NCBI RefSeq assembly: GCF_027595985.1
Contig: NC_073305.1
Coordinates: 84,141,626-84,205,625, forward strand
Direction of reading: 5' to 3'
Length of the DNA: 64,000 nt
From: Sorex araneus
Lineage: Eukaryota; Chordata; Mammalia; Eulipotyphla; Soricidae
The translations under genes and the position numbers were made by a program. Shown here in pieces: positions 3,117-59,985 of this stretch. The first letter of the stretch is position 1. Each line of letters begins with the position of its first letter. The notes under the pieces were generated by a model that saw only the letters and a program-made list of their open reading frames with translations, ran no database searches and was not told where the DNA came from.

Positions 3117-4475
3117 ATAGCACTGAAAGTATAATGGTTGTACATAGTTATTTAGAACAATGAGGGGGGAAAGGCCCAGAAATTAAAAAAAATACAGAGA
3201 AAAGTTTAAAATAAGATCAAAGTGGTATCTTAATGGGAAGATGATGACATTTTAAACAAATAACATTAGGAACATTAATAAAATATAGCAACTTGGGAAA
3301 AAAAGTAAAATTAGTTTCAGATTTTGCATCCTATAGTGGAAATTTTTTTAAATCAATTAAAAGTATAAAAAATTAATAAGACAAAGAAGACATAAAAACA
3401 GTGGAAGAAAACATTGGTTGTTCTTTTTATAACCTGAACATTAGAAAAAAACAGTTCCAAAGTCAGAAACTACACAGATTTAGAAAGAAAGGAAAAATGT
3501 GAAGTTTGATCAATTCAACATGCATGCATGTGTATAATTTCTCAGTGGCAAAATATAATATTAAAACCAAAATGTAAATGGAAAACTAGGAGAAATAAAT
3601 AAAAGAATATTCTCTGTAGACTGTAAAGAACACTTCATATTGTACAGCTGTGTAGTCATGAAAATTATTTTTCCTGTTGTAAAAAAATATAAAGTAATAA
3701 AGAGTCCTTTAATTAGTCTGGGTGAGACAGGAGAACGGCCAACATAAAGTGTTATACAACTGAACTTGACTGAATAGGATCAGAAAATTTTCCCAGTCAT
3801 AAAAAAATTAAAACGTACTTGTGCAAGCATTGCAAAGTTCATCAACTACAATAGTCAGTTGTCCTCGTAAGCAAATATCTATGTGCTTATAAAAGAACTA
3901 GTAACTATTTACTCTGTCCTTTTAACTTATCACCCTCTTTCAATCTTTGCCCAGTTCCCATCTGTAAGGAGGTTCTTCTTGCAAGCTTCATCTATTTTTG
4001 TTAACAGTAAACCAAAAGATAAAAATATTTACATGAAAGCCACTCCCACTTGTATAGTACCATTTACATTTGCCATGGCAACCTCAGAAATGACCGTGCT
4101 GCCTCCCAAGTTTACTATCTAGCTTCACATGCCACTTCCTTCCCTAGCATTACTGGTCATAGCGCTGGTGGACCCCCTACCACTAGGACAAAACAGCATA
4201 TCACTGGATTCATACTGAACCAGCATGCCTGCACTTATGATATAATTCATCTGAGAGACAAGAAATGTAGAAGTAGAAATAGTAATCTCAAAAGAAAAAT
4301 AAGAGGACGCAGAACTCCCAAGAAGAAAAGCTGATATAAGTATAATAGAAATACAGTGATGATCGTTACATGTATTAACTCACTTAATCACAACAATAAT
4401 TCTAGAAGAATGATAATATTCTTACCATTGAGTTATAGATGAACAAACTCCATCCAGTAAAGAAAATGTAAAGTC
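3117..4475. other. Unassigned AT-rich intergenic DNA
   Basis: No conserved exon or recognisable repeat. The short open frames near 3883-4334 look random. Confidence 0.4.
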
Positions 4476-7596: not shown

Positions 7597-7835
7597 GGAC
7601 TGGAGCGATAGCACAGCAGGTAGGGCATTTGTCTTGCACGTGGCTGACCCGGGTTTGATTCCTCCGTCCCTCTCAGAGAGCCCAGCAAGCTACCCAAAGT
7701 ATCCTGCCTGCACAGCAGAGCCTGTTAAGCTACCCATGGCGTATTCGACATGCCAAAACAGTAACGAGTCTTACTCTCACAATGGAGACATTACTGGTGC
7801 CTGCTCAAGCAAATCGGGATGACAGTGATACAGTC
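7597..7835 (+). repeat. SINE-B copy with target-site duplication
   Basis: A tRNA-like head ('ctggagcgatagcacagc', 'cccgggtttgattcc') is joined to the SINE-B body ('gagagcccagcaagctacc', 'atgccaaaacagtaac') and ends 'gatgacagtgatacag'. It is bounded by the 12-bp direct repeat aattttaatctt at 7585-7596 and 7836-7847. The end is a gacagt-type microsatellite, not poly(A). Confidence 0.93.
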
Positions 7836-11706: not shown

Positions 11707-12235
11707 ATCTACCCGCATCTCCCGGGCGGGGAGTTGGCGACGGGACCCCCTGGAAGAACTGACGCCTGAACGATCTTCCCAGCGGGCGGGGCAGCCTGGG
11801 ACCCCCTGGAAGAACGAACCAACGCTGAACGATCTTCCCAGCGGGCCGGGCAGTCTGGGACTCTCTGGAAGAACCGACTCATGAACGATCTTCCCATTCG
11901 ACCGTGCAGCGCTGGGCGCCCTGGAAAAACCGACGCCTGGAGGAACCCCCACCCGGCCGTGCAGCCCTGGACCCCCTGGAAGAACGGACGCCTGGAGCTC
12001 CTCCCACCCGGCCCGGCAGCCCGCAGCCCCCCGGAAGAACCGACGCATGAACGGTCTTACCACCCGGTGGCACAGCCTGGGACCCCTTGGAAGAACCGAC
12101 GCAGGAACGATCTTCCCACCTGGCCGGGCAGCCCGGGACCCTGATCCTCCCATCCGGTGGGAAAGCCTGGGACCCCCTGGAAGAACCGACGCATGAACGA
12201 TATTCCCCGCCTGTCGGGCGGCCGGGGGCGCGCCG
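11707..12235 (+). repeat. ~55-bp minisatellite spanning the C6orf141 start codon
   Basis: Nine or so diverged tandem units of about 42-58 bp. Each has the core 'ctgggaccccctggaagaa' followed by 'ccgacgc' and often 'atgaacgatcttcccacc'. Units begin near 11764, 11825, 11881, 11938, 11993, 12046, 12102, 12147 and 12193. The last unit supplies the initiator ATG of the downstream gene. Earlier units also carry ATGAACG (11881, 12046), in contexts that end at stops. Confidence 0.85.
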
Positions 12236-15690: not shown

Positions 15691-15700
15691 ATATCAAATT

Positions 15701-15797
15701 CGATATGCCAAAAACAGTAACAACAAGTCTCACAATGGAGACGTTGCTGGTGCCCGCTCTAGCAAATCGATGAACAACGGGATGATGGTGCTGTAAC
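15701..15797 (+). repeat. SINE-B 3' fragment, inverted against the next copy
   Basis: It carries 'cgatatgccaaaaacagtaa' to 'gatgaacaacgggatga' in plus orientation, then meets a minus-strand SINE-B tail to tail. Confidence 0.85.
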
Positions 15798-16036
15798 TGT
15801 CACTGTCATCCCATTGCTCATTGATTTGGTCGAGCGGGCATCAGTAACGTCTCATTGTGAGACTTATTGTTACTGTTTTTGGCATATCCAATAAGCCACG
15901 GGTAGCTGGCCAGGCTCTGCCATGCAGGCAGGATACTCTGGGTAGCTTGCTGGGCTCTCTGAGAGGGGCGGAGGAATTAAACACGGGTTGGCCGCGTGAA
16001 AGGCGAATGCCCTACCGCTGTGCTATTGCTCCAGCC
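15798..16036 (-). repeat. SINE-B copy
   Basis: A full-length minus copy, from 'tcactgtcatcccattgctc' through 'gtttttggcatatccaataa' to the head complement 'gctattgctccagccc'. Confidence 0.93.
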
Positions 16037-16110
16037 CATGATGGTGCGTGCTACTATAGATTAAGTTTACCACTAAACCTATCTGATTCCTTCACTATGC
16101 AATTATTATG

Positions 16111-16325
16111 CTGTAGCACTGTAGCACTGTCACCCTGTTGTTCATCAATTTGCTCAAGCAGGCACCAGTAACGTCTCCATTGTGAGACTTGTTACTGTTT
16201 TTGGTATATCAAGTACACCATGGGATACTCTCCGTTGCTTCCTGGGCTCTCCGAGAGGGACGGAAGAAATAAACCCAGGTCGGCCACATGCAAACGCCCT
16301 ACCCACTGTGCTATCGCTCCAGTCC
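16111..16325 (-). repeat. SINE-B copy
   Basis: Minus copy running from a 'gtagcactgtagcactgtca' tail to 'gctatcgctccagtcc'. It lacks a segment of the body near 16218-16230. Confidence 0.9.
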
Positions 16326-16472
16326 ATATTATACTGTACTTTATGATATTATAATTGTTAAAATATTACATATAATTACATAATGTATTATCAGTTTTAA
16401 TATCTTATAACTATTATACCACATTTCTCTATGCTTAATATTATGCTCTAATAATATATATTACATATTAAG

Positions 16473-16702
16473 TTGGAGTGATAGCACAGCGGGTAGGGTG
16501 TTTGACTTGCACACGGCCAACCTGGGTTGTTATCCTCAGTCCCTCTCGGAGAGCCCGGCAAGCTACCGAGAGTATCCCACCCTTACAGCAAAGCCTGGCA
16601 ATCTACCCATGGCATTCTCAATATGCCAAAGACAGTAACAAGTCTCACAATAGAGACGTGACTGGTGCCCGTTCGAGCAAATCGATGAACAATGGGAAGA
16701 CA

Positions 16703-16704
<2 letters not shown>
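16473..16704 (+). repeat. SINE-B copy
   Basis: A plus copy from 'ttggagtgatagcacagc' to 'gaacaatgggaagacagtga'. Its tail runs straight into a (TA)n array. Confidence 0.92.
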
Positions 16705-16742
<38 letters not shown>

Positions 16743-21025: not shown

Positions 21026-21610
21026 CACTGTCACTGTATCACTGTCATCCCATTTTTCATTGATTTGCTCAAGCAGGTGCCAGTAACGTTTCCATTCGTC
21101 CTAGCCCTGAGATTTTAGCAGCCTCTCTTTACTTGTCCTTCCAATGGCACCATATTGGAGGCTCTTTCAGGGTCAGGGGAATGAGATCCATCATTGTTAC
21201 TGTTTTTGGCATATCAAATATGCCACGGGGAGCTTGCCAGGCTCTGCTGTGTGGGCAGGATACTCTCAGTAGCTTGCCAGGTTCTCCAAGAGGGAGAACT
21301 AGACAATAAGAGGTCCTTTGGCCTCTAATGCAACCGCGCACTTCAGGGAGCTTTGTTTTATAGTCTCTGGATCTTGGCCATTGATGGGATTACACAGTGC
21401 CAGGGGCAGTTTGTGGGTGTGACTGCCTAGCAACTGGAAAAGGGATCTGGGTGGAGGAGGCCCAGTCCCGACTGAGCAGGCTTGGAGATCTCAGACCCGG
21501 GTCCTGCACACCTGGATTCTTCTGCCAGTTCCTTCATACATGAAGCTTGTCTGAGCGTGTGGAGAGTGGCCTTGAGCATGGCAGCCGAAGACCTCCGGAA
21601 CCCAGCCACA
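21026..21610 (-). mobile_element. Element D copy 1
   Basis: Read on the minus strand, a GC-rich 5' region is followed by a block shared with SINE-B ('cctggcaagctactgagag', 'gatatgccaaaaacagtaac'). Next comes a ~95-bp stretch absent from SINE-B. The 3' end is also shared with SINE-B and the RTE-like LINE ('ggacgaatggaaacgttact', ending 'gatgacagtgatacagtgac'). I read D as an internally deleted, non-autonomous derivative of the LINE. The 5' edge is approximate. Confidence 0.7.
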
Positions 21611-24530: not shown

Positions 24531-24713
24531 GGGGCTGGAGTGATAGCACAGCGGTTAGGGCGTTTGCCTTGCACGCGGCCAACTTGGGTTCGATTCCCAG
24601 CAACCCATCCTCCAATCACCGCCAGGAGTAATTCCTGAGTGCAGAGCCAGGAATAACCACTGTGCATCATCGAGTGTGACCCCCCTCAAAAAAAAAGCAA
24701 AAAAAAAATTCAC
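24531..24713 (+). repeat. SINE-A copy
   Basis: Full length, from 'ggggctggagtgatagcaca' to 'gagtgtgaccccc' and an A-rich tail. Confidence 0.92.
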
Positions 24714-24989
24714 AGGTTATCCTTAAGTATTTCCTAAAAAAATATTGATGTTGGGGAAATATGGCTCTTTTATTATCTTAGAATGTAAATTTGAAAGAGG
24801 AAACCTTAGTTTCCCCTTGCTGACAAGAGGGAAGCTCAGTTTCCCCTTTCCAGCAGTTCCATTTCTTCCCATCCACCTACCACATCCCATCCCCAAGACC
24901 CTATCTTTACCATTTCTGGTCCCCGGGATCATACTTTTCGTCCCAGAACTAGGAGTCACAGACTAAGATAATAAACAGTACCCAAGGCA

Positions 24990-25520
24990 GGTGTCCAGAA
25001 AGACAAACCAACCTGACCACCCTGTAGATCAGTTACATTTTCTAACACCAAAGTCCCCAGAATCCCATCCACCACCACCATCCCACCCCACCCCCTGCCT
25101 ATGACTGTCACTGTCATCCCTTTGCTCATCGATTTGCTCAAGGGGGCACCAGTAATGTCTCCATTGTGAGACTTGTTTTTACTGTTTTTGGCATATTGAA
25201 TACACCACGGGTAGCTTGCCAGGCTCTGCCATGCGGGCGAGATACTCTCGGTAGCTTGCTGGGCTCTCCGAGAGGGGCGAAGGAATCGAACCCGGGTCAG
25301 CCACGTGCAAGGCAAACGCCCTACCCGCTGTGCTATCGCTCCAGCCTATACGGCAAACAATTTACTTCTTACTCTCTCTCTACTTTTGGGCATTATGGTT
25401 TGCAATAAAGATACTGAGAGGCCGTCATGTTTGGTCCTTTATCTACTTTTAGCACACACCTCCCATCCCGAGCGATCCCTCCATCATTGACTTTGTGATC
25501 CCTTCTCTCTCCCAACTACC
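24990..25520 (-). mobile_element. L1 3' UTR split by a SINE-B
   Basis: L1 3' UTR-like sequence before 25102 resumes at about 25350 ('tttgggcattatggtttgca', 'caacacacctcccatcccga'-like). A SINE-B sits between the two parts. Confidence 0.6.
25103..25347 (-). repeat. SINE-B copy
   Basis: Full-length minus copy with a well-preserved head ('gaatcgaacccgggtcagcc', 'tgctatcgctccagcc') and a 'gactgtcactgtcatccc' tail complement. Confidence 0.95.
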
Positions 25521-31206: not shown

Positions 31207-34200
31207 CTGGAGAGATGTACACAGTCAAATGGCATAGACACAAAAAAAGGAAAGACACTCTAGGCAAGTACAAAAGCAATCATATGTGATTCTGTGCTTT
31301 GGAGCGTATGATTCTGTCAATTCTTCTCATGGGATCTGGTTCCCAGCTTAAGGACTGGGATCATAAAATTAAATCCACAAATCAGGGATATACCTGATGG
31401 GCTCCATTTAGGGAGACAAGTGATTACATTTCAACGCAAAAATGTGACAGGCAAAGCCAAGGGTGCCTTAACAATACAGCAAAGCTACCTAATGTTATTT
31501 GGAAGGCCAAGGTGTCCTCATTCTTTGTATGAGAGCTTTGAGACTGCTCTTGTACAAAAGATGGGATGTTAGCCAGGAAAAGATAGGGGGAAATGTAGAA
31601 AGGATCATTTGAGGGCTGAAAGAAATTGGACACTGGAGCATAGAGAATGAAACAAGGAGTCTCAAACCTGGGACTGGGCCAGTAGAAACTGGATCAAACT
31701 GAAGCACAGAGTGCCACAGAACAAGTAGTGACTAGGCAAGGGGCCAGGCTTCCTCCAACTCCAGAACTGTCCCTGTCAGGTTAGCTGACCAATCCCTTGG
31801 GAAAAAGCTCTCATCCTGACAAGATTCCTTTTCCAGGAGTACAATATAGCCAAACTGATCATTGGTCTTAATGTGATCCTACTGGGTTTATAATGGTTGT
31901 CTGGTGGGAAGCATTCATGACGCAAAGCAAAAAAATACAAATTATCTTCAAATTTATTTATTTATTTAATGTAATTAATTAATTAATATATTTATTTGCT
32001 TTTTTGGTCACACCCGGCAATGCACAGGGGTTATTCCTGGATCTGCACTCCGGAATTACTCCTGGCGGTGCTCAGGGGACCATATGGGATGCTGGGAATC
32101 GAACCCGGGTCAGCCGTGTGCAAGGCAAATGCCCTACCCGCTGTGCTATTGCTCCAGCCCCTCAAATATATTTATTTATTTTTAATTATTTTTTTATTTT
32201 TATTTTTTTGCTTTTTGGGTCACACCCGGAGATGCACAGGGGTTACTCCTGGCTATTCACTCAGGAATTACTACTGACAGTGCTCAGGGCCCCATATGGG
32301 ATGCTGGGATTCGAACCTGGGTCAGCTGCGTGCAAGGCAAACACCCTACCCGGTGTGCTATCGCTCCAGCCCCCTCAAATTATTTTTTTTTAAAAGTATA
32401 TGGACCATACAGTGTACCTTTTTGGTTTAGGCATTCTTTGAAAGGTTGGTTTTCAAGTAATAAATAAAACTTAAAATTGCTTTAAAATTAAAGGACAGAA
32501 TGATGCCTCACAGTTTCTTAGTATGTCTCCTTATGTCTGAAATTTTGTGCCACAGAGGGAAAACCCAGAATCTTAACATAGTGCTAAGAAAAGCCAGTAA
32601 TTTTTTTAAACGATCAGAATTTTTCAAACCACCCTTCTTAAGCAAGATATCTTACCTGCTGAAAAGGGCATGAAAGCTTCTTTCTTGATAAACTTTCCAG
32701 TAGGACTGAGGAAATGCTGAGGATTAAATGTATCTGGTTTTTCCCACTGTGTCTGATCGTGAAGGACAGAGGCCAGCAATGTGATTACCTCAGTGCCCTA
32801 GAAATAAGAATGCTGTTAGTGACAGATTAAATTCCTTCCTAAAAAGGTGACTTCTGGAAGATGTCTATCAGCTCTTTAGACAACTGTTGTGAAGCAGTGT
32901 GTTTTGAAAGGTAGTGGGGAAAGGTGGGGAGTGGAGAGGTAGCAGATAGGCTCTGAGATTGAGAGTGGAATATTTATTTCAACCATATTTTCATTCAGTA
33001 TCACTGTATCACTGTCATCCCATTCATCATTGATTTGCTTGAGTGGGCATCAGTAACGTCTCCATTTGTACGAGCCTGAGATTTTATTTATTTTTTAAAA
33101 TTTATTTATTTTAATTAGTGAATCACTGTGAGGGTACAGTTACAGATTTATACATTTTTGTGCTCATGTTTCCCTCATACAAAGTTCAAAAACCCATCCC
33201 TTCACCAGTGCCCATTCTCCACAACCAGTAAACCCAGCATCCCTCCTACCCTCCTCAATCCCATCTCCCCCCACCCCACCCTGCCACAGTGGCAGGGTAT
33301 TCCCTTCTGTTCTCTCTCTCTAATTAGCTGTTGTGGTTTGCAATAAAGGTGGTGAGTGGCCACTGTGTTCAGTCTCTAGCCCACATTCAGCCCGCATCAC
33401 CCTTCCCCCCGCATGGCCTCCGACCACATTATACTTGGTGATCCCTTCTCTGAGTTGCCCTCTCCCCAGAATGTGAGGCCAGCCTCCAAACCATGCAGTC
33501 AACCTCCTGGTACCTATTTCCACTATTCTTGGGTGTTAGTCTCCTACTCTGTTATTCTATATTCCACAGATGAGTGCAATCTTTCTATGTCTGTCTCTCT
33601 CTTTCTGACTCATTTCACTCAGCATGATACTTTCCATGCCGATCCACTTATATGCAAAACTCATGATCTCCTTTTTTCTAACAGCTGCATAGTATTCCAT
33701 TGTATAGATGTACCAAAGTTTCTTCAACCAGTCATCTGTTCTAGGGCACTCGTTTTTTTTCCAGATTCTGGCTATTGTAAAGAGTGCTGCGATGAACATA
33801 TAAGTGCAGATGTCATTTCAACTATACTTTTTTGCTTCTCTGGGATATATTCCCAGCAGTGGTATTGCTGGGTCAAATGGGAGCTCAATATATAATTTTT
33901 TGAGCATCATCCATATTGTTTTCCAAAACAGCCGAGCCCTGAGATTTTAGCAGCCTCTCTTTACTCGTTCTTCTCAGCGGTGCCACATTGGAGGCTCTTT
34001 CAGGGTAAGGGGAATGAAACCCATCATTGTTACTGTATTTGGCCTATTAAATACGCATGGAGAGCTTGCCAGGCTCTGCTCTGTGGGCAGGATGATCTCA
34101 GTACCTTGCCAGGTTCTCTGAGAGGGAGAACTAGGCTATAAGAGGTTGCGTGGCTGCAAATGTGGCAGCGCACTTCCGGAAACATTGTTTTATAGTCTCT

Positions 34201-37200
34201 GGATCTTGGCTGTTGATGGGACTACACGGTACTAGTGTGGCTGCCAAGCTACTGGAAAATCGGGGGTCTGGGTGGAGGAGGCCCAGTCCCGATCCAAGCA
34301 AGTTTGGAGATCTCAGTCCCAGGAACCACACACCTGGGTTTCCCTGACAGTTCCTTCATGTGTGGAGAGGAGGTTTGGAGGCTGGCCTCACCACATGAAG
34401 GCTTCTCTGAACGTGTGGAGAGGAGCCTTGAGCATGGCTGTTGCTGGGTTCAGGAGGTCTTTGGAGCTGCAGGGTCTCTGTTCAGGGTGGGGAGGGAAAC
34501 TCAACCCGCCCCGCTCCTAGGGGCCCCGGTGAAGACAGCCAGGCGCGGGGGTAAGTGACTCTGCCTTTCATTCAGTACCAACTGAAAAATGAGAACAGCT
34601 TTGAACTTAGAACCGGGAAAAAAATTCTTGCTTAGTCATATTTTTGCTCTGTGATAACAATATCTTATTTAATTTGAGAATCTCTAAGTTCATATGATAT
34701 TTTTATGTTTCTATGATAGGTGTCAAATAGTCTTTATATGGTAACTGTGAACCTAAGGTGAAAGGAACATGTGGAAGAAACTGGTGCAGTTCTGGCTGGT
34801 TTTGGGGCAAAGTGAAAGACTGTCTTTTACCTACATCAACTATGAAAGTCGATAAGCGAAATCCTCCAAATGATGGAAGCCAATTCTGCCATATAAACTG
34901 CAATATTTCCACACCTCATCTTATACTTTTTATTACATGAATGTGATACATGAAAAATTACTCATAACACTAAAAACAAATAAAAACAAAAGTTTTATTT
35001 CAAGTTATTATTCACTTTTTCCCCTAAGTTAATCACAGTTTCTTCTTCTGGAAAAAATTGGAATACTGTCACTAGAGTTAGCTGTTTAATCATAAGAAGT
35101 GTTATAGTTTTGAGTTATGAAAAACAAAGTTCTACTTTAAGGGTTTTTTTCTACTGTTTTTAGGAACTAAAAAGATTGTACAGCAGGTAGTGCATTTATC
35201 TTGCACCTGGCCAACCTGGATTTTATCCCCATCACCCCATATGGTCTTCGAGGCCTGCCAGAAGTGATCCTTGAGAGCAGAGCCCGGAGTAAGTCCTGAA
35301 CACTGCTGGGTGTGGACAACCCCCTCCCCCCAAAAAGATCTTTTTCTAAAATGACTAATTTAATTATTTACTTGGGCACTAGACATGAACTTTATCCTCC
35401 TCCTTCTAATAGTGCAAGATTATTTTCATTTCATGAAAGAGAAGATCAAAACTCCATGAAGCTGAAGAATCCGAATATTGGTAAATCAGTTAAATCCCCT
35501 TTAAATGCAAAGCTCTTTCTAATACCATACTCCAGCCAGCAAGCACAGAGAACTAGAACCAAAATCCTGCCACTACCACTGCTTCCTTACCTCCTTACTC
35601 CATTTTTTACAGTGGTTTTAGTTTATTATTATCATTATTATTATTATTACTGTTGTTGTTGTTGTTGTTATTTCAGTTGCTAATCTGACTAATTGAATTC
35701 AATAGTGTGCTTAACATCAGCTGAGGTGTTCAGAAGGTGCAGGTAACTCTTTTGTTCCTAGGATCTGTACAAGGGTTGGGGTTCACTTCACCATGGACTT
35801 ATGTAGAGATGGAAATAGCAATAGTGAACCAATCAAGTATTGAGGGAAATAATTGTTCTATGGGAAACTCCAAGCATAGCTGAGTGGAAAACCACCTGCC
35901 TTCCAAGCATGAAGCAAATGAGACTGTGAGTTTGATCTCTGACACTGGCCTACATGATTGAGTGCTCTCCCAAGGGCTCTGCTACTTGGGATCCCATAGG
36001 CATAGTCAAGAATATGAGGCTCCCTGTCATCATGGAACCAGGAGTAACCCCCGGCCATTGCCTGGTGTGGCCCCAACACAATATAAAAAAAGAAACAAGA
36101 AAAGGGGGAAGAAGTGGAGAACTCAGGACTTAAGAGGGTAGATAATTAATTTGTAATCCTGACTCCATTATGTACCAATCCCTGAACCCCATTTTCCTGA
36201 ATAATAGCATAAAAAGAGAGAAAGAGAGAAGTCTGGAGAGATAGTACAGAGGTCATGGGGCTTGCCTTGCACTTAGTCAGCCAGGGTTAGAACTCTGACA
36301 CCTCATATAGTCCCCTAATTACCAGGCATACAGACCTCTGAGCTCAGAAGTGGAAGTAAGCCCTGAGCACAGCTAGATATGGTTCAAAAACAAAATAATA
36401 GCATTAAATTTTAAAAGAAAGAAAATACGAAGAATGCCTTATAAAGTTGTACAGAGTAAATATTACCTATGCATGCATAGAAAACCAGTCGCCTTCTGTC
36501 TGATGGTAGAGAAGGAGAGAGAGAAAGAAGAAAAAAGAGAAAAGGTGGGAGGAAAAGTAAAGAGTATCTCAATTTTTTGGGGGGTACTTCTGTGGTACTT
36601 CTGAGCAGCTGACATGCTTTCCTTCTTCCCTCACTTCCCCTTCCTCAATTCTTACCTTTGGAAGATAGTAATTTTTAAATGTCACATTTGTGGTGGTTGC
36701 ATGAGGTATACTTGTGGGCAGGATGTTAGCAAATCTCTGCACTTCATGAATGACAGCATCTGTATATGGCATTTGAGTTCGGTGTGTGATCCGAGGCTGG
36801 CCTAAACCCACAACTTTGATAATCTCATCACGAACCTTTTCTGGATGAAACGAAATGAGAGAAATGACAGCGTGGAGAAGAGGAAATGCTGAAACAACCC
36901 TTCCCGTTTCCTCTACACAAGAAAGTCATACCCAAGCACGTCCCAAATTCTACCACTGCTTTTTCCAGACCATCAACCCACAGTCATCTGTTTCTAAGCC
37001 TTTCTGAGGACTGTTAGGTAGTTATGTCTCTTGTGATGCCTCCAGAACTGGAGAAGTTATCCAGTGTGGTGATAGAATACTCCATCATCCAGACTTCAAT
37101 AGTGAATGGATGTTCCAAGCTTAATAATTTTTAGTTGTGTAAGAACTGCTCCTTATTGGTGTAATTAATATGCTCTACAACATAGTCCATTTCAGATTTC

Positions 37201-40200
37201 TGATTTCTCTCCTTTTAGCAATGCTCTCCATGTTGGTGACTTACTCTGGATTTCAGGATAGCGCATCATGAGTAGAATCCCCCAGCGCAGTGTGGAAGAT
37301 GTGGTCTCGGTACCTGCCGCAAACAGGTTACTAATAACGGCCACTAGGTTTTCATCACTGAAAAAGTTTGTTGACATTTTTTTCTCCTGAAAGAAGCAGA
37401 TAGCAATTTGATCATTTTGTAGTGGAGAGCCATAACCTTCTGTGAATTTAAACAAATAAAACATTGTGTTCTTTGTTTTTTTTTTTCTTTTTGGGTCATA
37501 CCGGTGATGCACAGGTGTTATTCTTGGAGGGTTACTTCTGGCTCTGCACTCAGGAATTACTCCTGGCAGTGCTCAGGGGACCATATGGGATGCTGGGAAT
37601 CGAACCCGGGTCGGCCGCGTGCAAGGCAAACACCCTACCTGCTGTACTATTGTTCTAGTACTCAAATACTGCATTCTTTCTTCAAAAAATTTTTTCAACT
37701 AATTTATTGTGAGAAATTTATCTGAATCTTTGTCTAAAAATAAATTAAATTTAATAGTTTAAACTGTTGAAAACTCTTTGGTACTATTAAAGAATTATTA
37801 TCTAAGTGTGATAATGGTAGTTTGGTTATTTTTATTAAGTCTTTTTTTTTGTTTGATTTTGGATCACACCTAGCAATGCTTAGAGCTTACTCCTGAATAG
37901 TGTTCTGAGGACCATATGCAATGCTGGGCATCAAACCTTCATTGGCATGTGCAAGACCTTATCTGCAGTATTATCTCCCAATCCCGTAAGTCCTTATTGT
38001 GTGTGTGTGTTTGTGTACATTGGTGCACACATGATATATACTAAAATATTTATCGCTGTCACTGTCACTGTCATCCCATTGCTTACCGATTTGCTCGAGT
38101 GGGCACCAGTAACGTCTCCATCATGAGACTTGTTGTGACTCTTTTTGGCATATCGGATATGCCATGGGTAGCTTGCCAGGCTCTGCTGTGGGAGACTAAA
38201 ATATTTATAGGAAAAATAATTCAATGCTTGGGATTTGCTTCACAATAATCTAAGAGGTGGGCCAAGATGATGACTCAAAGGACTGGAGTTCATGTTGTAC
38301 ATGTGGGAGCCCAGGGTTTGAACCCTGACATGACATGGTCTCCTGAGCACTGCCTGGACTTCTTTCTAATCTTGAAAATGTTGTGTAGATATTTAGAACA
38401 GAGCAAATTCTGGGTCCTTCCAATGATCAATTATTGTAATATTGGGACAGTCTCTGACTTTTAGGAAGATTGCATCGCTTGTATCACTTGTCATCCGTTG
38501 ATCTTTGATTTGCTCGAGTGGGCAACAGTAACGTCTCCATTCGTCCCTATCACGTGCTAGTGTAGTCCAGTGGTATCTGCTTGCTCTACAAACAGGAAGA
38601 GCCTCAAACCATTCATTCAGGGTTTTGAAGAAGTCTGACCATCTTGTTGGTGAGCAGTCACGTGGTCTTTTGATGTTTCACGGAATCCAATTGGTAACAG
38701 CTCTAGTTCAGCAGTTGTCTCTGAATTGCATTATGTGTCCGGCCCAACTTGGGGTGTAAAACTCCTTTCCTTTATTTATTTTTATTTTTTGTCTTTTTTT
38801 GCTTTTTGGGTCACACCTGGCGATGCACAGGGGTTACTCCTGGCTCTGCACTCAGGAATTATTCTAGGTGGTGCTCACAGAGGGTCTCTTGCCCGCATGC
38901 CTGGCTGTCTTCCCCGGGTCCCCTTGGAGGGGATGGGCTCCAGCTTTCCTCCCCGCCCCAAGCAGAGCTCCCAGTGGCCGAAGACCACCAGAACCTAGCC
39001 ACAGCCATGCTCAAGGCCCCTCTCCACATGTTCAGACAAGCCTCATGAATGAAGGTACCAGCAGCGGAACCCAAGTGTGTGTAATCCCGTCAATGGCCAA
39101 CATCCAGAGACTTAAAAGCGACCTCTCAGAAGTGTGCAGCCGCTTTGCGCCACAATATCTTATAATCTACTCCCTCTGGGAGAAACTAGCAAGCTACTGA
39201 GAGTTTCTGTCCACATGGGACAGCCTAGCAAGCTTCCCATGGTGTGTTCATATGCTAAAAGCTGGGTCTCATTTTCCTCACCCTGAAAGAGCCTCCAATG
39301 TGGCATCGTTGGGAAGGCCGAGAAGAGAGAGGCTTCTAAAATCTCAGGGATAAGACAAATGGAGAGGTTATTTTGCCCGCTTGAGAAATCGATGATCAAC
39401 AGGATTCGTGATCGTGATCGTGATTGGTGCTCAGGGGACCATATAAGATGCTGGAAATCGAACCTGGCTGTGTGCAAGGCAAACACCCTACATGCTGTGC
39501 TCTCGTTCCTGGCCTCTCCTTTCCTTTATGTGATGAACTCTCCTCTTTCTGGAGAAACCTGCACTCACTTTTGGGTATGTTTTCTTTTCTCTTCCTTTTA
39601 AAAGCATTTCTAAAATACAAAAAATCATTCTTTAAAACGTCTCAATATTTTGAACATAGTAACTGAACAAAGAACTGACATCTAAATTCCTCTATGTTTT
39701 TCTTTTATTTAAGTGAAATGAAAAAAGTGGCATGTATCTGAGACTGTAATACATTGTACTTGTAGTATACAAATCAACCATTAGCCTCTTAACTGAATCT
39801 AGCCATCTCTATGTTGAAAGAAATATTTCTTTGATGTCGATGTATTAATCACACCAAATTATAAACACTGGGCTAAGGTAAACTCTGATAAAAAAAACAC
39901 CATTACCTCCTGCTGTTTGATGAGAAATGCATCAATAAAACTTCGTGGATCATTTGTGTCCAATTTCTGTCGGTATTCTAGAAAAGTTTTTCTTATAAAA
40001 GAAAATAATTCATCTCTATTCTTGAGTACTTTTTTATGACTTTTTAGAAGAAACCCTAAAGCAGGAAACATATTAAAAAGCTAAAAGAATAAAAGAAATA
40101 ATAATATTCAGTATAGACATATGATTCTTATGGTCGTAAGAATGACACAATTATTTTCAAAAACTTGTTTTCTAAATAAGTTTTGAAACTTATTTAGAAC

Positions 40201-43200
40201 ATACACAGCTTGAATTTTACCTCAATTCACAGTGTCAGAGAGTAAACTATAAGATGATATTTTCTCATTAATTAAAGTTATAAAATTATAGTGAAAATGA
40301 TAGTGCTTATAGTAAGTTCTATTTCCCACAGTATTTTGTTTATTATGTATGTGGTAGCAGACTGTGTTAGATGAGATGTGAAAACAGTACTGATTTTTAT
40401 GGTCAGAGCTATGAATGTTTTTCTTTCAAAATTCCTAAATGCTTTTCTTTGAAAATTCTGGGTTATTTCAGGTTTCCAATCAATCTATTTTATTTCTGTG
40501 TAGCATGTTAAAATTGTCACTATTTTTTTTCTATAGGAGAAAATAATAGTTTAATTTAGGTTTACTGTCTTTAGATCCTATAGAGCAACACTACTTAATA
40601 TAAAATTCCCTGACCCTTAAAAAGTTTATTGTTTTCAAAATTTTGTATATTTGTCAGGATATTCATTTTTGATAGATAAGCTTTTTACATTTTGTCAGAT
40701 TCTCAAAAGAGTTCTTAACTCTCCAATTACTTACTGAATACTGACCTAAAACATCATGCTTGGAATTAGGCATTATGGTTGCCTGATCCATCTGTACTTG
40801 GAGTAAACTTACACTTGTCAAAACAGAGTAAAATCTCTGAGGGGAATGCTCTGGTTGCTAATATTGTTTTGAAAGTGAGTATTATTTGAAAAAATTCTGC
40901 ATTTAGAAAATAGCAACATTACCACCTGCAAATACAGCCCCCAAATTTGACTGTGTTATGTTACACCACTCAGAACAAATATTAAGTATTTATTTATAAT
41001 TTCTTTAATTGGGGCTGGAACGATAGCACAGTGGGCAGGGCATTTGCCTTGCATGCAGCTGACCTGGGTTCAATTCCCAGCATTCCATATGGTCCCCCAA
41101 GCATGACCAGGAGTAATTCCTGAGTGCAGAGCCAGGAGTAACCCCTGTGCATTGCCGGGTGTAACCAAAATAAATAAATAAATAAATAAAATAATAATAA
41201 TTTCTTTAATAATTTTAATTATTCAAATTATTTTTGCCTGAGCAGGTACCAGTAACATCTCCATTGTGATACTTGTTGTTATGAACAACAGGATGACAGT
41301 GCTACAGTGCTGTTTAAATTATTAATTTTAATTAATTTCCCTTGGGTCCCTTGATAGACATCCTTTGTTAAAATTCACATTTTTTACCTAAATTCACTGT
41401 ATCACTGTATCATTGTCATACCATTTCTCATCGATTTGTTCGAGCAGGCACCAGTAATGTCTCCATTGTGAGACTTGTTGTTACTGTTTTTAGCATATCA
41501 AATATGCCACGGGGAGCTTGCTAGGCTCCGCCATGTGGGCGAGATACTCTTGGTAGCTTGCCAGGCTCTCTGAGAGGGACGGAGGAATTGAACCCGGGTC
41601 TGCCTCATGCAAGGCAAATGCCCTACCTGCTGTGCTATCGCTCCAGCCCTTTATCCCAATTATCATATATAATTAGTGACATTAGTAAGATATTATAAAA
41701 TATTGGATGCAATGGGACAATAATTGTTTAATAATAATAAGTTAATTATGCTATTTAGCCAGGCAAACTTGCCAATGTGTCTCTGTGTTCAGGATTTACC
41801 TTTTCTCTAATACTTTTCTCTAATACTTTTCATGATCTCTCCTACAATCAAACGTAACTCTGAGTAACTAAAAGTAGTTAGGAAAGGTACAGTTACCACA
41901 ACTTTAGGACATCCGATGAGTTTCACATTTTCACTTATCAAGTGTAAAAGCCTCAGGAATTGAGGGTCTTGGTAGTCAAATCGTTTTCCAAATAACACCG
42001 ACACGATGACATTAGCAACAGAAGCATTCATTACTGTCGTGACCTCAAAGGGCTTTCCTACAATAAATTAATCAGACTATAAATATTGACTAAGTGTTAA
42101 ACTAATTTAAGTTTTATTTGGACAGAGCAACAAAGAATTTCAAGAAGAATGTTTTCAAAAGAGAGTTGAGACTAAAAGGACCATGAAAAAAATATTCAGA
42201 TTTTTGTCCAAAGGTTGCCATAAGGAAAACAAGAAATATATCTCAAAGAAAATCTGCATTTGGCTGAGTCCAGTTGATATGTGCCAGGTGAAACCGTTCA
42301 GTGTGTGTGTTGCTGGAAGTAGGGTGGAGGGGATTAATGCATAATATCTGGCAAAGTATCCTTTTAATTAGGAGTTTGCACTCAAGTTAAAAGTTTCAAG
42401 TAGAGAGGCTGCTTAATGGCCATGATACCAGAGACTCAGGAACAAGTCTCGGAACCCAGCGGCTTTTGGCAGAAATGTGTCCTGACTCTACATTAGATTA
42501 CCAGCCCGAGGCCACCTCAGGTGGGAAAAGGTTCTGATTCACGGCCTGCTCCCCCTGGCAGCTCAGTGGCTGCCATATTCCAGAGGCCAATGGACAGCCA
42601 GGTAGGGGCCCACAGTGAGGAGACACATGGGGCCTCACAGGGTGGGGATGGAGCCGGCCCTTTCCTCCCCCACCCCAAGACCCTCAGTCACCGCCCACGA
42701 AACGGCCTCTGTGGCTCCTGATCAGGCTGCTTAATGGCCTTGATCCCAGAGACTTAGAAACAAATCTCAGTACCCAGTGGCTTTTGGCAGAAATCCCTCC
42801 AGATTTAATTATTAAAATTTCAGAATTCCAAAATCATATACTATTCATAATCGGCAATAGAAAACAAATTGTCTAACATTGCCTTTTTGGCAGACCTGAA
42901 TTTTGGGGTAAAATCTCAAATAATAATTGTGGGTCCGGTGTCAAAATATTGAATATAATTAAAGTAGAGAGTAATGTGGAAACCATCTGCCACACAGGTA
43001 GGGGGAGGGTGTGGGATGGAGGTATACTGGGGTTGTTGGTGGTGGGAAATGTGCACTGGTGAAGGGGCAGGTGTTTCATCATTGTATGACCGAAACTTAA
43101 ACCCTAAAACTATGTAACTGCTCTCACGATGATTCAATAAATAAATTTATTTTAAAAAAAAAGTTTAAAATAGAACTTTTAGTTGATTAAAATAATTCCA

Positions 43201-46200
43201 CTTAAAGGGATTTCATCAAGAACAGTCTTATTTCAGTTTTTTCTTCAGTGGATCTTGTTTTCCTTAACGTCTAGATCATGAAACATGTGGATGAACATTG
43301 GTCTTTAAGTCAAAGCATTTTAGTTGCTAAGAGACACTCAATATCAATATCTTTAATATGAAAGCCTAGGAAAATTTTTGCGAAGAACATATTTTTTTCT
43401 TTATGTATAAAAAGAAGCACAAATAAAATTAGCACTTATTAGGACCTTAATACAAAAGAAAGAGTAATTTTTGGATTTTTTTTTTTTGTATATGTAATGT
43501 CTCCAAACTGCCGAGACCCTCTCATTGTAAGTGTGGAGAAACTGCTAAATTAGCACAGGGGATGGCTGAGCCTTCTGTTTCTTCTCCGCACTCACCTCAG
43601 GCTTGTCTTCCTTTGATCATTTCTCCAAGTTAATTCTTGCATCAGTGAAGATACTATGCAAATGAGCTAATTTTTAATAAGAACTAGCTAAGTTTAATGA
43701 GAAAATGCAACACAAAATGAGTTTTTGCATTATTCCACATAGCACAGTGGATAGGGCGTTTGCCTTTCACATGGCCGACCCGTGTTCGATTCCTTCGCCC
43801 CTCTCAGAGAGCCCAGCAAGCTACCAAGAGTATCTCCCCCACACAGCAGAGCCTGGCAAGCTACCCATGCCAAAAACAGTAACAATAAATCTCACAATGA
43901 GAGACGTTACTGGTGCCCGCTTGAACAAATCAATGAGCAACGGGATGACAGTGACAGTGACAGCATTAGTTTTATATTACTTAAAGGGATCAAAAATAAA
44001 CCCACTAATAAGAAATCGTTTCAGATTAAAACAAACAAAAGAGGGGTCTGAGTGATAGTACAGTTGGTAGGGTGTTTACCTTGCACAAGGCAGACCCAGG
44101 TTCGATCCCCTGCATCTCATATGGTCCCTCAAGCACTGCCAGGAGTAATTCCTGAGTGAAGAGCTAGGAACAACCCCTGAGCATCTCTGGGTGTGACCAA
44201 AAAAAGCATAAAATAAAAAAAAGAAAAACAAAAGAGGCACGATATACTACATGATTTCAACTTTTTTTCACTATTTGGTATGTTAATGGTATAGTGGCAA
44301 AATAGGAGTAAATTCTGCAGATTACATAATAATATGCTATCAGTGTTAATTTCATGAGTTTTTAAAATTGTGTTTTTTTGTTATGCAGAAATTATTTTTT
44401 TGCTACATTTAAGGAAACAAATATTTTAGAATATAGAAACAGTGTATCTGCAAATCAATCTCAAACAGTTCACAGAAGAAGAGATAGATGTTAAATACTG
44501 ACATTTGGGGAAACTTAAAGAACAGTAGAAAGATATTGCAATAATTGGTGTGACTTGGAATTTTCCTACAAATTTGAAATTATTTCACTATCAATAATTG
44601 AGCTTATACAATTTGTTGAAGAATACCTCATGAAAAATAAGATGTGTTTTATATTGTTTCTACGCACCTCTGTGAAGCTCAAAATTCTGTATGAGATGTT
44701 TGCATTCCTCAATAATTCTGTCTTCAATGATCCTTTTGCCCATGCCAAAGTTTCGTAAAGTAGTCAGGCTGAATCTTCTCATGGTTTTCCATGTTTCCCC
44801 ATGAGAGAAGACAATTCCTGATGGTGAGGAATTATTTTTAAATTAGTTCCTTGAATTTTACAAAACTTAATTTGCAAAGACAAATATAATTTTATAACAG
44901 CTCAATTCTCTCTGTAAAAAATAAAGAAATGACATTTCATCTTTTTTTCTTAGGCCATTTATTTTAGAAAACTTTCTAAGTTCTCTTTCACCTCTTTCAA
45001 CTATGTCTGTATCATATTGAAAACTAGATAGGACTCCTGTTAGCTTTGTGACCTAAGAAACTTTTTTACAGAGACCTGGGTACCACCTCTTGGGAGAGGG
45101 GTGGAGAAGGGAGAACCAATCCCATATTCCCCCCTTCCCCTCTCCTTATTTTACAGGTATGAACCTGATTTTGGTGTATGCCTTGTTTCAACTTACAAAA
45201 CCACCTTGTGTTATGAAGATATGAGAAAAATTTCCTGAGTACAAGTCAATTAACGCCGATGGTCACCCTAATTACTAGAAATCTAGGATGAACAATGTGG
45301 CAATGGTGCTGTCAAGCCCTCTTACTTAAGAATGAGTTATTACTTATTTTTCTTTTTTCCTTTTTAGGTCATACCTGGCGATGCACAAGGGTCACTCCTG
45401 GCTCTGCATTCAGGAATTTTAATTTTAATTTTAAGAGGCTCACACTTGACAGTGCTTAGGGACTGCTACTAACTCTGTGCCCAGAATTCATTCCTGGCAG
45501 TATTTGGGAACAGGATATGGTACCAGGGATTGAACTGGAGTCAACTGCATCCAAGGCAAGTGCTGCAAACCCTGTATGCAAATCTCTTTGGCTAAAATTA
45601 AATAGGCTTTTCATGATTTTTCTCAAGATCAGTGAGATCTAATGTATCCAAGGAAGAGGTCATAATATGCAGCATTTTCAAATTCAATTTACTGGCTACA
45701 CTTTCTGTCTAGAAGGTTTACTGACATTTTGTGGAACTAGTTTTATTGTTTTTAGGATAGTAATATCCTAAAATCCTAAAATAAATACTTTCCAAAAATG
45801 TTATTGAAGCATTAAAATGGCTATGCAACTTTTACTAGGAGTCAGTATTACTTTACTAAAAACATTCATAACAAAGTGAAACCATACCTATTTTAAAAAG
45901 CTATTAAGTCAGTGTCAAAGAATGAAAAAGTTAGCTTTAGTATTAAAGAGATAATCTGATAATATAAAGTGTTGCTTGAACGTTCATGCCGTAGGAGGCG
46001 CTGAGACAAGGAACGCAGAAGAAATGTATTTCATGGAGGGTGTAGGTTCTTCTCTCTGACTCTTAGACAAAAGTAGAGAGCCTCGTGATCTCCTTTTATT
46101 GATCATGGTACCACAAAAGGGCGCAATACAGTGAAGTCACCAAAGGCATCAAAAGAAGTTACAGGAAGAACATTGAGGCAGTAGAATATGTTGTTTCCTT

Positions 46201-51246: not shown

Positions 51247-51498
51247 CACTGTAGCACTATCGCACTATCCTCCTGTTGTCCATCGATTTGCTCAAGCGGG
51301 CACCAGTAATGTGTCCATTGTGATACTTATTGTTACTACTTTTGGCATGGGTAGCTTGCCAGGCTCTGCTGTGTGGGCGAGATACTCTAGGTAGCTTGCC
51401 AGACTCCTAGAGATGGGCGGAGGAGTTAAATCTGGTTCGAACCCAGGTTGGCTACATGCAAGGCAAATGCCCTACCCACTGTGCTATTGCTCCAGCCC
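51247..51498 (-). repeat. SINE-B copy
   Basis: 'gtagcactatcgcactatcc' to 'gtgctattgctccagccc'. Confidence 0.93.
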
Positions 51499-56188: not shown

Positions 56189-56421
56189 ACTGTAGCACTG
56201 TCATCCAGTTGTTCATCAATTTGCTCGAGTGGGCATCAGTACCGTCTCCATTGTGAGACTTGTTGTTACTGTTTTTGGCATATCGAATACTCCACGGGTA
56301 GCTTGCCAGGCTCTGCTGAGCGGATGGGATACTCTTTGTAGCTTGCTGGGCTCCCTTCGAGGGACGAAGGAATCAAACCTGGGTTGGCCACGTGCAAGGC
56401 AAATGCCCTACCTACTGTGCT
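56189..56421 (-). repeat. SINE-B copy
   Basis: 'cactgtagcactgtcatcca' to 'ccctacctactgtgctgg'. The very start of the head is lost. Confidence 0.92.
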
Positions 56422-56459
56422 GGAATCTCATTAGTGGCAGGAAAAGTTTGTTTTTATTT

Positions 56460-58386: not shown

Positions 58387-58634
58387 TCACTGTCATATCA
58401 CTGTCATCCCATTGCTCATCGATTAGCTGGAGCGAGCAACAGTAACGTGTCCATTGTGAGACTTATTACTGTTTTTGGCATATTGAATATGCCACGGGTA
58501 GCTTGTCAGGCTCTGCTGTGTGGGCGAGATACTTTGGGTAGTTTGCCAGGCTCTCTGAGAGGGACAGAGGAATCGAACCTCGGTTGGCCGTGTGCAAGGC
58601 AAATGCCCTACCCGCTGTGCTATCACTCCAGCCA
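58387..58634 (-). repeat. SINE-B copy with target-site duplication
   Basis: Full-length minus copy flanked by the 11-bp direct repeat gtacctttgta (58376-58386 and 58636-58646). Confidence 0.95.
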
Positions 58635-59778: not shown

Positions 59779-59985
59779 GAGTTGGAGTGATAGCACAGCA
59801 GGTAGGGCATTTGCCTTGCATGCGGCTGACCCAGGTTCGATTCCCAGCATCCCCCGTATGGTCTCCTGAGCACCGCCAGGAGGAATTCCTGAGTGCATGG
59901 AACAGAAGTAACTCTTGTGCATTGCCAGGTGTGATCCAAAAAGCAAAACAAACAAACAAACAAACAAACAAATAAACAAATAAAT
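59779..59985 (+). repeat. SINE-A copy with (AAAC)n tail
   Basis: 'ggagttggagtgatagcaca' to 'caggtgtgatccaaaaagc', then (AAAC)n. Confidence 0.93.

What the first reader, a model, noticed from the sequence alone, without database searches (positions are those of the whole stretch)
38478..38755. RTE-like LINE 3' end shared with the SINE-B family: a partner LINE
The minus strand encodes [22 protein letters not shown] and a PLEQI end typical of an RTE-clade C-terminus. Its last ~70 bp are the 3' end of SINE-B. SINE-B ends in gacagt-type repeats instead of poly(A), as RTE elements do, whereas SINE-A with the same head has an A-rich tail. So one tRNA head seems to have been paired with two tails: one for RTE machinery and one perhaps for L1. 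RTE elements have a known history of horizontal transfer, so their source in shrews is worth asking about.
Basis: partly seen in the sequence, partly recalled or inferred. Interest (0 to 1): 0.75.

Follow-up and report, generated by a model that had tools for sequence, protein, structure and literature searches.

The report
Shrew SINE built from invading LINE
A short jumping element in this shrew genome is a tRNA-like head joined to both ends of a longer jumping element related to ones in parasitic worms, and its insertion sites suggest that it is copied by that longer element's enzymes.

Summary
38475-38749(-) is a broken RTE-clade C-terminus. The window holds three copies of a headless relative; other deletion classes occur in the genome. 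Insertion sites fit two machineries: SINE-A is L1-like (AAAA in 24/33 flanks); SINE-B is not (4/49) and shows the published RTE 'Tn-TA' signature. Against a simple partner story, tails differ by one base: LINE ends with the SINE-type tail number 6, with the LINE type 1203. The LINE is very probably RTE1_Sar, whose nematode-shrew transfer was published in 2019; 113 of the 120 best RT homologues bear strongylid names. SINEs with bipartite RTE tails are known in birds and hagfish. I found no held paper linking one to RTE1_Sar; Repbase and Dfam were unavailable. New member of a known kind.

The parts
38475..38749 (-). RTE LINE 3' piece: 5'-truncated, broken C-terminus ending ...[14 protein letters not shown], then tail repeats
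   Evidence: nhmmer to the LINE 3' consensus, positions 55-333, E 7.6e-66; translation
38480..38544 (-). Segment shared with the SINE-B 3' end (coding end of the LINE, no 3'UTR)
   Evidence: blastn to SINE-B copies; consensus match 54/59
38881..39406 (+). Headless internally deleted RTE derivative (SIDE-1): 5' part + RTE 5'UTR + last ~70 bp of the RTE
   Evidence: nhmmer to the SIDE-1 consensus, 4-201 and 317-667
21028..21600 (-). SIDE-1 copy
   Evidence: E 1.5e-150
33899..34565 (-). SIDE-1 copy, cut short at the 3' end
   Evidence: E 7.7e-133, SIDE-1 1-645
25108..25346 (-). SINE-B, near full length
   Evidence: E 4.2e-66
7598..7827 (+). SINE-B, near full length, 12-bp duplication AATTTTAATCTT
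15800..16037 (-). SINE-B, near full length, duplication GCACCATCAT
16125..16324 (-). SINE-B with internal loss
16472..16706 (+). SINE-B
41411..41649 (-). SINE-B
43739..43954 (+). SINE-B
51263..51498 (-). SINE-B
56196..56422 (-). SINE-B
58398..58633 (-). SINE-B, duplication TACAAAGGTAC
38066..38194 (-). SINE-B, 5'-truncated
   Evidence: SINE-B 111-239
24531..24739 (+). SINE-A example (tRNA-Ala-like head, A-rich tail)
41011..41199 (+). SINE-A example
59779..59953 (+). SINE-A example

Best explanation
38475-38749(-) is a dead, 5'-truncated copy of a shrew RTE LINE, very probably RTE1_Sar. The LINE ends inside its own coding sequence: in the consensus its stop codon is part of the tail repeat. Deletion of the middle of this LINE gave short headless elements (SIDEs) made of its 5'UTR and last 60-100 bp. 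A tRNA-Ala-like head identical to that of the older SINE-A became joined to such a deleted RTE and gave SINE-B. SINE-B RNA is probably made by RNA polymerase III from the head. The RTE protein probably recognises the LINE-derived 3' end and tail repeat, nicks DNA at T|A about ten bases after a T run, and copies it in. SINE-A, with the same head, uses L1-type machinery. Shown by sequence: the composition, the deleted forms, the two kinds of insertion site, and the nematode kinship of the LINE. Inferred: transcription, protein recognition, the direction and order of the deletion and joining steps.
For: Head 66/66 to SINE-A; body 103/109 to the RTE 5'UTR consensus of 4 loci; tail 54/59 to the 3' end consensus of 20 LINE loci. 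The body lies directly before the reading frame that leads into the endonuclease region in L028, L026, L016 and L019. SIDE-1 consensus from 20 fetched of 41 listed places: 165/192 to the RTE 5'UTR, then the LINE 3' end, with a 10-bp direct repeat (CAGGGACGAA) at both parent breakpoints of the consensuses. Further SIDE classes: 15 of 20 fetched of 690 pattern matches. L120 has the head on a longer 5'UTR and longer 3' end, flanked by TACACTAAAATA on both sides. AAAA at 6-22 bases before the element: SINE-A 24/33, SINE-B 4/49, p=1.2e-9. Duplications in 24/49 SINE-B (control 3), median 12, against 9/33 SINE-A (control 2), median 16, p=0.025. Tn-TA: T at -10/-11 in 36/48, T at -1 in 18/24, A at +1 in 17/24, as published for Bov-B and Sauria SINE (PMC13295347, passages). 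SINE-B copies are young and uniform (K2P 0.048, n=10), close to the LINE (0.055, 17 matches in 20 selected loci) and below SINE-A (0.120, n=31). RVT_1 E 1.6e-14 and 3e-16. Strongylid homologues.
Against: The LINE tail unit differs: with one upstream anchor, 1203 exact LINE ends have ...GATGACAAGTGA and 6 have ...GATGACAGTGA. No shared RNA fold: LINE 3' end z=+1.0, SINE-B z=-2.3. RTE's own insertion sites are few and only weakly alike: T at -1 in 4/7, A at +1 in 4/7, T at -10 and -11 in 2/7 and 3/7, TTT at -14..-7 in 2/7 (one of the 8 duplications was dropped as low-complexity). The endonuclease match is below Pfam's cut-off (Exo_endo_phos_2 E 5e-4). The 5'UTR consensus rests on 4 loci, because the genome search with it did not complete. 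I saw no RTE1_Sar sequence, so the name is inferred.
Confidence: 0.88

Rival explanations
1. SINE-B and the SIDEs were driven not by the LINE family seen today but by an earlier or now rare RTE lineage with a different tail; the present LINE is a sister, not the driver. This is a variant within the RTE explanation.
For: SINE-type tail on LINE ends 6 against 1203. SIDE-1 18/20 (1 unread) and SINE-B 14/19 (5 unread) carry a T-ending codon (mostly GAT/AAT) where 20/20 selected LINE copies carry an A-ending one (AAA 12, GAA 7, TAA 1); 21 of the 22 proteins that show this place have D there, and the other, unnamed, has K. L127 ends ...GACGACAGGTGATGCAGGTGA, which reads DDR-stop, as 13 of the 29 proteins end.
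Against: LINE copies with the GAT/AAT codon and the ordinary ACAAGTGA tail exist (L115, L123, L126, L128). L127 is too short (about 100 bp of the element) to tell a LINE from a truncated SIDE. SINE-B and LINE copies have similar divergence. The count of ACAGGTGA-tailed LINE ends did not complete.
Confidence: 0.35
2. Reverse direction: the RTE picked up its 5'UTR in the shrew from a resident SIDE or SINE, so the SINE-B body is not of LINE origin.
For: LINE 5'UTRs do turn over (established knowledge). I could not see nematode 5'UTR DNA.
Against: SIDE-1 joins 5'UTR and coding 3' end at a 10-bp repeat present in both parent places of the LINE consensuses, and three SIDE breakpoint classes keep the LINE order. 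SIDE-1 also shows weak similarity to the RTE's further upstream 5'UTR (42 bp, 79%, E 9e-6).
Confidence: 0.1
3. SINE-B is mobilised by L1 like SINE-A and its RTE parts are passengers.
For: Same head as SINE-A; L1-type sites occur in this genome for SINE-A.
Against: No A-rich tail, AAAA flank in 4/49 only, short duplications, Tn-TA signature.
Confidence: 0.03
4. The RTE pieces are nematode contamination or assembly error.
For: Nematode contamination of an older shrew assembly is reported (PMC6542046).
Against: Copies lie across long contigs and are nested with shrew SINEs (L016, L019, L025); the 2019 paper tested and rejected contamination for RTE1_Sar.
Confidence: 0.01

Closest known systems
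RTE1_Sar (Dunemann & Wasmuth 2019, PMC6542046; abstract, three of six parts of the text and searched passages seen)
   Same: RTE LINE of the common shrew, closest to Heligmosomoides and Nippostrongylus elements; the best 120 of 727 proteins here are strongylid where a species is shown (113), and the shrew rows fall in a fork with those two genera in my tree.
   Different: The paper has no occurrence of SINE, short interspersed or non-autonomous. The parts seen give no sequence, so identity with this copy is inferred.
AviRTE and its SINEs, e.g. ManaSINE1 (Suh et al. 2016, PMC4844689; passages)
   Same: SINEs with a promoter-bearing head and a bipartite tail of 5' and 3' pieces of an RTE shared horizontally between nematodes and vertebrates.
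   Different: Birds and filarial nematodes, another RTE. There the 3' piece is a ~40 bp 3'UTR; here it is coding sequence.
Hagfish SINE1-1_EBu and relatives (PMC7245038; passages); general rule in Kojima 2018, GBE 10:370 (cited there; not held)
   Same: Internal deletion of an RTE, then fusion to a small-RNA head.
   Different: 7SL head in SINE1-1_EBu, tRNA-type heads in its relatives; no horizontal origin claimed in the passages seen.
Persaeus SIDE / Zenon CR1 (PMC6740152; passages)
   Same: Short internally deleted elements of a LINE, short direct repeats at the breakpoints, high activity, several origins.
   Different: CR1 clade in Lepidoptera with poly(A); no head-bearing SINE derived from it in the passages seen.
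Bov-B / Sauria SINE (PMC13295347; passages)
   Same: Tn-TA insertion signature and microsatellite-like tails.
   Different: Another RTE family, reptiles and ruminants.
Sor SINE of shrews (Borodulina & Kramerov 2001, cited in PMC11240701, passages)
   Same: Probably SINE-A: both shrew SINE primers in PMC8608897 (passages) occur in the SINE-A consensus.
   Different: No sequence of Sor itself was seen here; SINE-B is not described in the passages seen.

Membership tests
RTE-clade LINE | Reverse transcriptase domain | tested here: met
   PF00078 E 1.6e-14 (L010) and 3e-16 (L028), both above cut-off
RTE-clade LINE | APE-type endonuclease | tested here: inconclusive
   Exo_endo_phos_2 E 5e-4 and Exo_endo_phos E 0.036, below cut-offs; several homologues carry PF03372
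RTE-clade LINE | Short or no 3'UTR ending in short repeats, no poly(A) | tested here: met
   ORF stop lies in the tail repeat of the consensus; 20 printed ends
RTE-clade LINE | Tn-TA insertion sites | tested here: inconclusive
   RTE itself 7 sites: T-1 4, A+1 4, TTT 2. SINE-B 24 sites clear
RTE-clade LINE | Placement in a tree with other LINE clades | not tested
   The tree held shrew rows, homologues named as strongylids and 5 unnamed homologues only
RTE1_Sar | Sequence identity to the Repbase entry | not testable with these tools
   No Repbase/Dfam. Species fits: the RTE exon (residues 89-158) of a predicted Sorex araneus protein is 99% identical at one place in G000, next listed identities 86% or less
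SINE with bipartite RTE tail | Small-RNA (pol III) head | tested here: met
   66/66 to the SINE-A head consensus; ARAGORN calls tRNA-Ala on 3 SINE-A copies
SINE with bipartite RTE tail | 5'UTR piece of the partner RTE | tested here: met
   103/109
SINE with bipartite RTE tail | 3' end of the partner RTE | tested here: met
   54/59, but the tail unit differs by one base
SINE with bipartite RTE tail | Mobilised by the RTE protein | not testable with these tools
   Only indirect: insertion-site signature
L1-driven SINE (SINE-A) | A-rich tail and TT|AAAA-type sites | tested here: met
   AAAA flank 24/33; A at each of +1 to +3 in 8/9 sites; A fraction 0.63 after the element. That L1 itself is the driver was not tested

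The most novel reading that the evidence does not exclude
The non-autonomous elements keep the 3' end of the founding, nematode-like LINE. They read I(D/N)EQRDD where the present LINE consensus reads IKDQRDD, D is the state of the nematode proteins, and their tail unit ACAGTGA is almost absent from LINE ends (6 against 1203). They would then be fossils of the element as it arrived, and parasites that reached order 10^5 copies with a tail their host LINE does not use. A SINE head, deleted LINEs and a head-bearing intermediate (L120) all survive in one mammal, so the birth of a SINE after a horizontal transfer can be followed step by step.
Probability: 0.35. Interest if true: 0.65.

Novelty: new member of a known kind. 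Interest (0 to 1): 0.5.

Why it matters
It connects a published horizontal transfer (worm LINE into shrew) to a large consequence in a mammal: a SINE family of order 10^5 copies that seems to depend on the newcomer. The copy number is a rough extrapolation from 10 near-full copies in this 64-kb window and 9 in the 84 kb of LINE loci. Because the same head also exists with an L1-type tail, the pair is a natural experiment on what a SINE needs from its LINE, and the one-base tail difference asks how strict RTE recognition is.

Tried and rejected
Pfam on the 92-aa window fragment found nothing. A whole SINE-B consensus as a DNA query returned 0 candidates (the tool skips very common words); an exact 62-mer gave 129 matches, reversed control 0. 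RNA folding of the shared 3' end gave no common structure. I first took SINE-B as a child of SIDE-1; its body is equally close to the RTE 5'UTR (103/109) and SIDE-1 (96/102), so the parent remains open. I also expected a LINE subfamily with the SINE-type tail; the count of 6 against 1203 went against it. Contamination was considered and rejected.

Selections and dropped rows. Young SINE-B set: 60 loci fetched of 129 exact 62-mer matches; 37 were full length with enough flank and were counted. SINE-A set: 34 before and 33 after dropping one hit whose flank carried the SINE-B end; one SINE-B copy (window 16037) escaped that filter and is still among the 33. RTE duplications: L028 was the reference, 8 of 19 loci gave one, and one low-complexity case was left out of the site table; in L010, L014, L015 and L025 the 5' point was mis-set by a nearby SINE-B, so no duplication could be expected there. 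Divergence: 17 matches of at least 80% length in 20 RTE loci. LINE loci were 20 of 40 listed and SIDE-1 loci 20 of 41, all picked by similarity; the 20 loci were picked by me on contig C1 from the part of the 690 that was listed. Ages of the selected sets are biased to young. The backgrounds in the binomial tests (0.42, 0.30) are my rough values. A matching count of LINE ends with the A-ending codon did not complete, so the 690 has no partner count. The tree rows were 41 proteins that I chose of 149 held, plus two shrew pieces.

Literature searched. RTE1_Sar is in 2 held papers; the second, PMC8384839, was seen only in listings. Passages of PMC12026660, PMC3272025 and PMC11544316 were also seen and added nothing on shrew SINE-B.
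Full report
What is there. The minus strand of 38475-38749 is a 5'-truncated, stop-bearing copy of the C-terminus of an RTE-type LINE. The genome held as G000 is 2.41 Gb in 65 contigs. The RTE exon of a predicted Sorex araneus protein (P0004) matches one G000 place at 99%, the other listed places at 86% or less, so the genome is the common shrew or something very close. The copy has many relatives: 4769 first-look candidates, 40 scored, all 40 listed at E<=3.8e-51.

The LINE. Twenty loci, of the 40 listed, were read. Their 3' consensus translates to ...[25 protein letters not shown], and that TGA is already part of the tail repeat (TACAAGTGA)n. In the consensus the element therefore has no 3'UTR; whatever the enzyme recognises in the last ~60 bp is coding sequence. 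Pfam finds the reverse transcriptase (E 1.6e-14, 3e-16) and a sub-threshold endonuclease. The protein search with the L010 reading frame gave 727 proteins at E<=1e-20; of the 120 listed, 113 bear names of strongylid nematodes and 7 show no species (that these genera are strongylids is from my own knowledge). In a quick tree of 43 rows (41 proteins that I chose, 2 shrew pieces) the shrew rows fall in an unresolved fork with Heligmosomoides and Nippostrongylus, with midpoint rooting only. This agrees with the published case of RTE1_Sar, a transfer between a strongylid nematode and the shrew (PMC6542046). That paper contains no occurrence of SINE. That this LINE is RTE1_Sar is inferred; I had no Repbase sequence.

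SINE-B is a three-part chimera. Its 66-bp head is identical to that of SINE-A (66/66). Its last 58 bp match the LINE 3' end (54/59). So SINE-B is head + 5'UTR piece + 3' end: the arrangement called bipartite in AviRTE SINEs of birds (PMC4844689, passages) and hagfish SINEs (PMC7245038, passages). The search of the genome with the 5'UTR did not complete, so its consensus rests on four loci.

Deleted forms. The window holds three copies of a headless element, SIDE-1, made of RTE 5' sequence and the RTE 3' end: 38881-39406(+), 21028-21600(-), 33899-34565(-). Its ~690-bp consensus from 20 genome loci matches the RTE 5'UTR over 165/192 and then the LINE 3' end. Both parent places carry the 10-bp repeat CAGGGACGAA in the consensuses, although a few extra bases (CTAG or CTA) sit at the join. 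Its more upstream part resembles the RTE 5'UTR only weakly (42 bp, 79%). Six of the 20 copies show duplications by my criteria. A genome pattern for the LINE-type sequence before the shared segment plus the SINE-type codon gave 690 matches, control 0. Of 20 fetched, 15 were internally deleted forms with two other breakpoint classes, 4 were LINE ends, and 1 (L127) is too short to tell. One, L120, carries the tRNA head on a longer 5'UTR and longer 3' end and is flanked by TACACTAAAATA on both sides: a single head-bearing relative less deleted than SINE-B. These are short internally deleted elements of the kind known from other LINE clades (Persaeus, PMC6740152, passages).

Two machineries. SINE-A and SINE-B share a head, so their insertion sites are a fair comparison. 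AAAA lies 6-22 bases before the element in 24/33 SINE-A but 4/49 SINE-B copies (2/37 young, 2/12 from the window and LINE loci; p=1.2e-9). The SINE-A excess is confined to that distance: 3/33 at 22-38 bases, where SINE-B has 8/37. One SINE-B copy is still among the 33. Duplications: SINE-B 24/49 found, control 3, median 12; SINE-A 9/33 found, control 2, median 16; p=0.025. A 2026 paper describes for Bov-B and Sauria SINE a signature in which the duplication starts with A after T, about ten bases after a T run (PMC13295347, passages). The T|A at SINE-B sites had been tabulated before I read it; the T run was looked for afterwards. In 24 SINE-B sites T is at -1 in 18 and A at +1 in 17. T is at -10 in 19 and at -11 in 17 (36/48; p=3.6e-6 against my rough background of 0.42). 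TTT lies in -14..-7 in 16/22, against 5/17 further up, p=0.011. In 9 SINE-A sites A is at each of +1 to +3 in 8. Six SIDE-1 sites agree with SINE-B (T-1 5, A+1 5, T-10 3, T-11 6, TTT 4). Seven RTE sites agree only weakly (T-1 4, A+1 4, T-10 2, T-11 3, TTT 2). So RTE-type insertion is well supported for SINE-B and under-sampled for the LINE itself.

Timing. K2P without CpG sites: SINE-A in the window 0.120 (n=31), SINE-B in the window 0.048 (n=10, quartiles 0.045-0.052), SINE-B near LINE loci 0.065 (n=9), RTE 0.055 (17 matches in 20 selected loci), SIDE-1 0.073 (20 selected loci); SINE-A against SINE-B p=0.0034. SINE-A looks older and longer-lived; SINE-B amplified in a narrow burst at about the age of the LINE copies read. 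One SIDE-1 lies inside an RTE 5'UTR (L016), so that RTE copy was there first.

What does not fit neatly. The tail unit of SINE-B and nearly all the SIDEs read is ACAGTGA; that of the LINE is ACAAGTGA. With the same upstream anchor the genome has 1203 LINE ends of the LINE type and 6 of the SINE type. At the seventh codon from the LINE's stop, 20/20 selected LINE copies end in A, while SIDE-1 (18/20, 1 unread) and SINE-B (14/19, 5 unread) end in T. Of the 22 proteins that show this residue, 21 have D and one unnamed protein has K like the shrew LINE. LINE copies with the T-ending codon but the LINE tail do exist (4 of the 20 fetched: L115, L123, L126, L128). L127 has the tail ACAGGTGA and reads DDR-stop, the ending of 13 of the 29 proteins. 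One reading is that the deleted forms left an early LINE lineage and then changed the tail by one base. I could not count the L127-type tail: no attempt was answered. No common RNA fold of the shared 3' end was found.

Verdict. The LINE and its horizontal origin are known; the kind of SINE is known; the shrew member and its chain of deleted forms were not found in the held papers, with the caution that Kojima 2018, Repbase, Dfam and SINEBase were not available.

Noticed in passing
G000:C12:263635286-263635495 (P0004): NCBI's predicted Sorex araneus F-box only protein 36 isoform X3 ends in 70 residues of RTE C-terminus: a predicted exonised LINE piece.
   Followed up: partly
L025, end of the LINE near 3756; window 15696-16037: SINE-B inserted tail to tail next to an RTE tail (duplication ACTTGTAT) and next to another SINE-B; insertion into existing tail repeats may be favoured.
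   Followed up: no
L016 2504-2974: A SIDE nested inside an RTE 5'UTR, showing that that RTE copy was there first.
   Followed up: partly
window 31948-32389: Two SINE-A copies head to tail, period 212.
   Followed up: no
window 11742-12141: GC-rich tandem array, period 56 (7.1 copies) with a 111-bp double unit.
   Followed up: no
window 32996-33086: Short 3' piece that matches LINE and SIDE-1 slightly further up than SINE-B; probably a truncated SIDE or LINE end.
   Followed up: no
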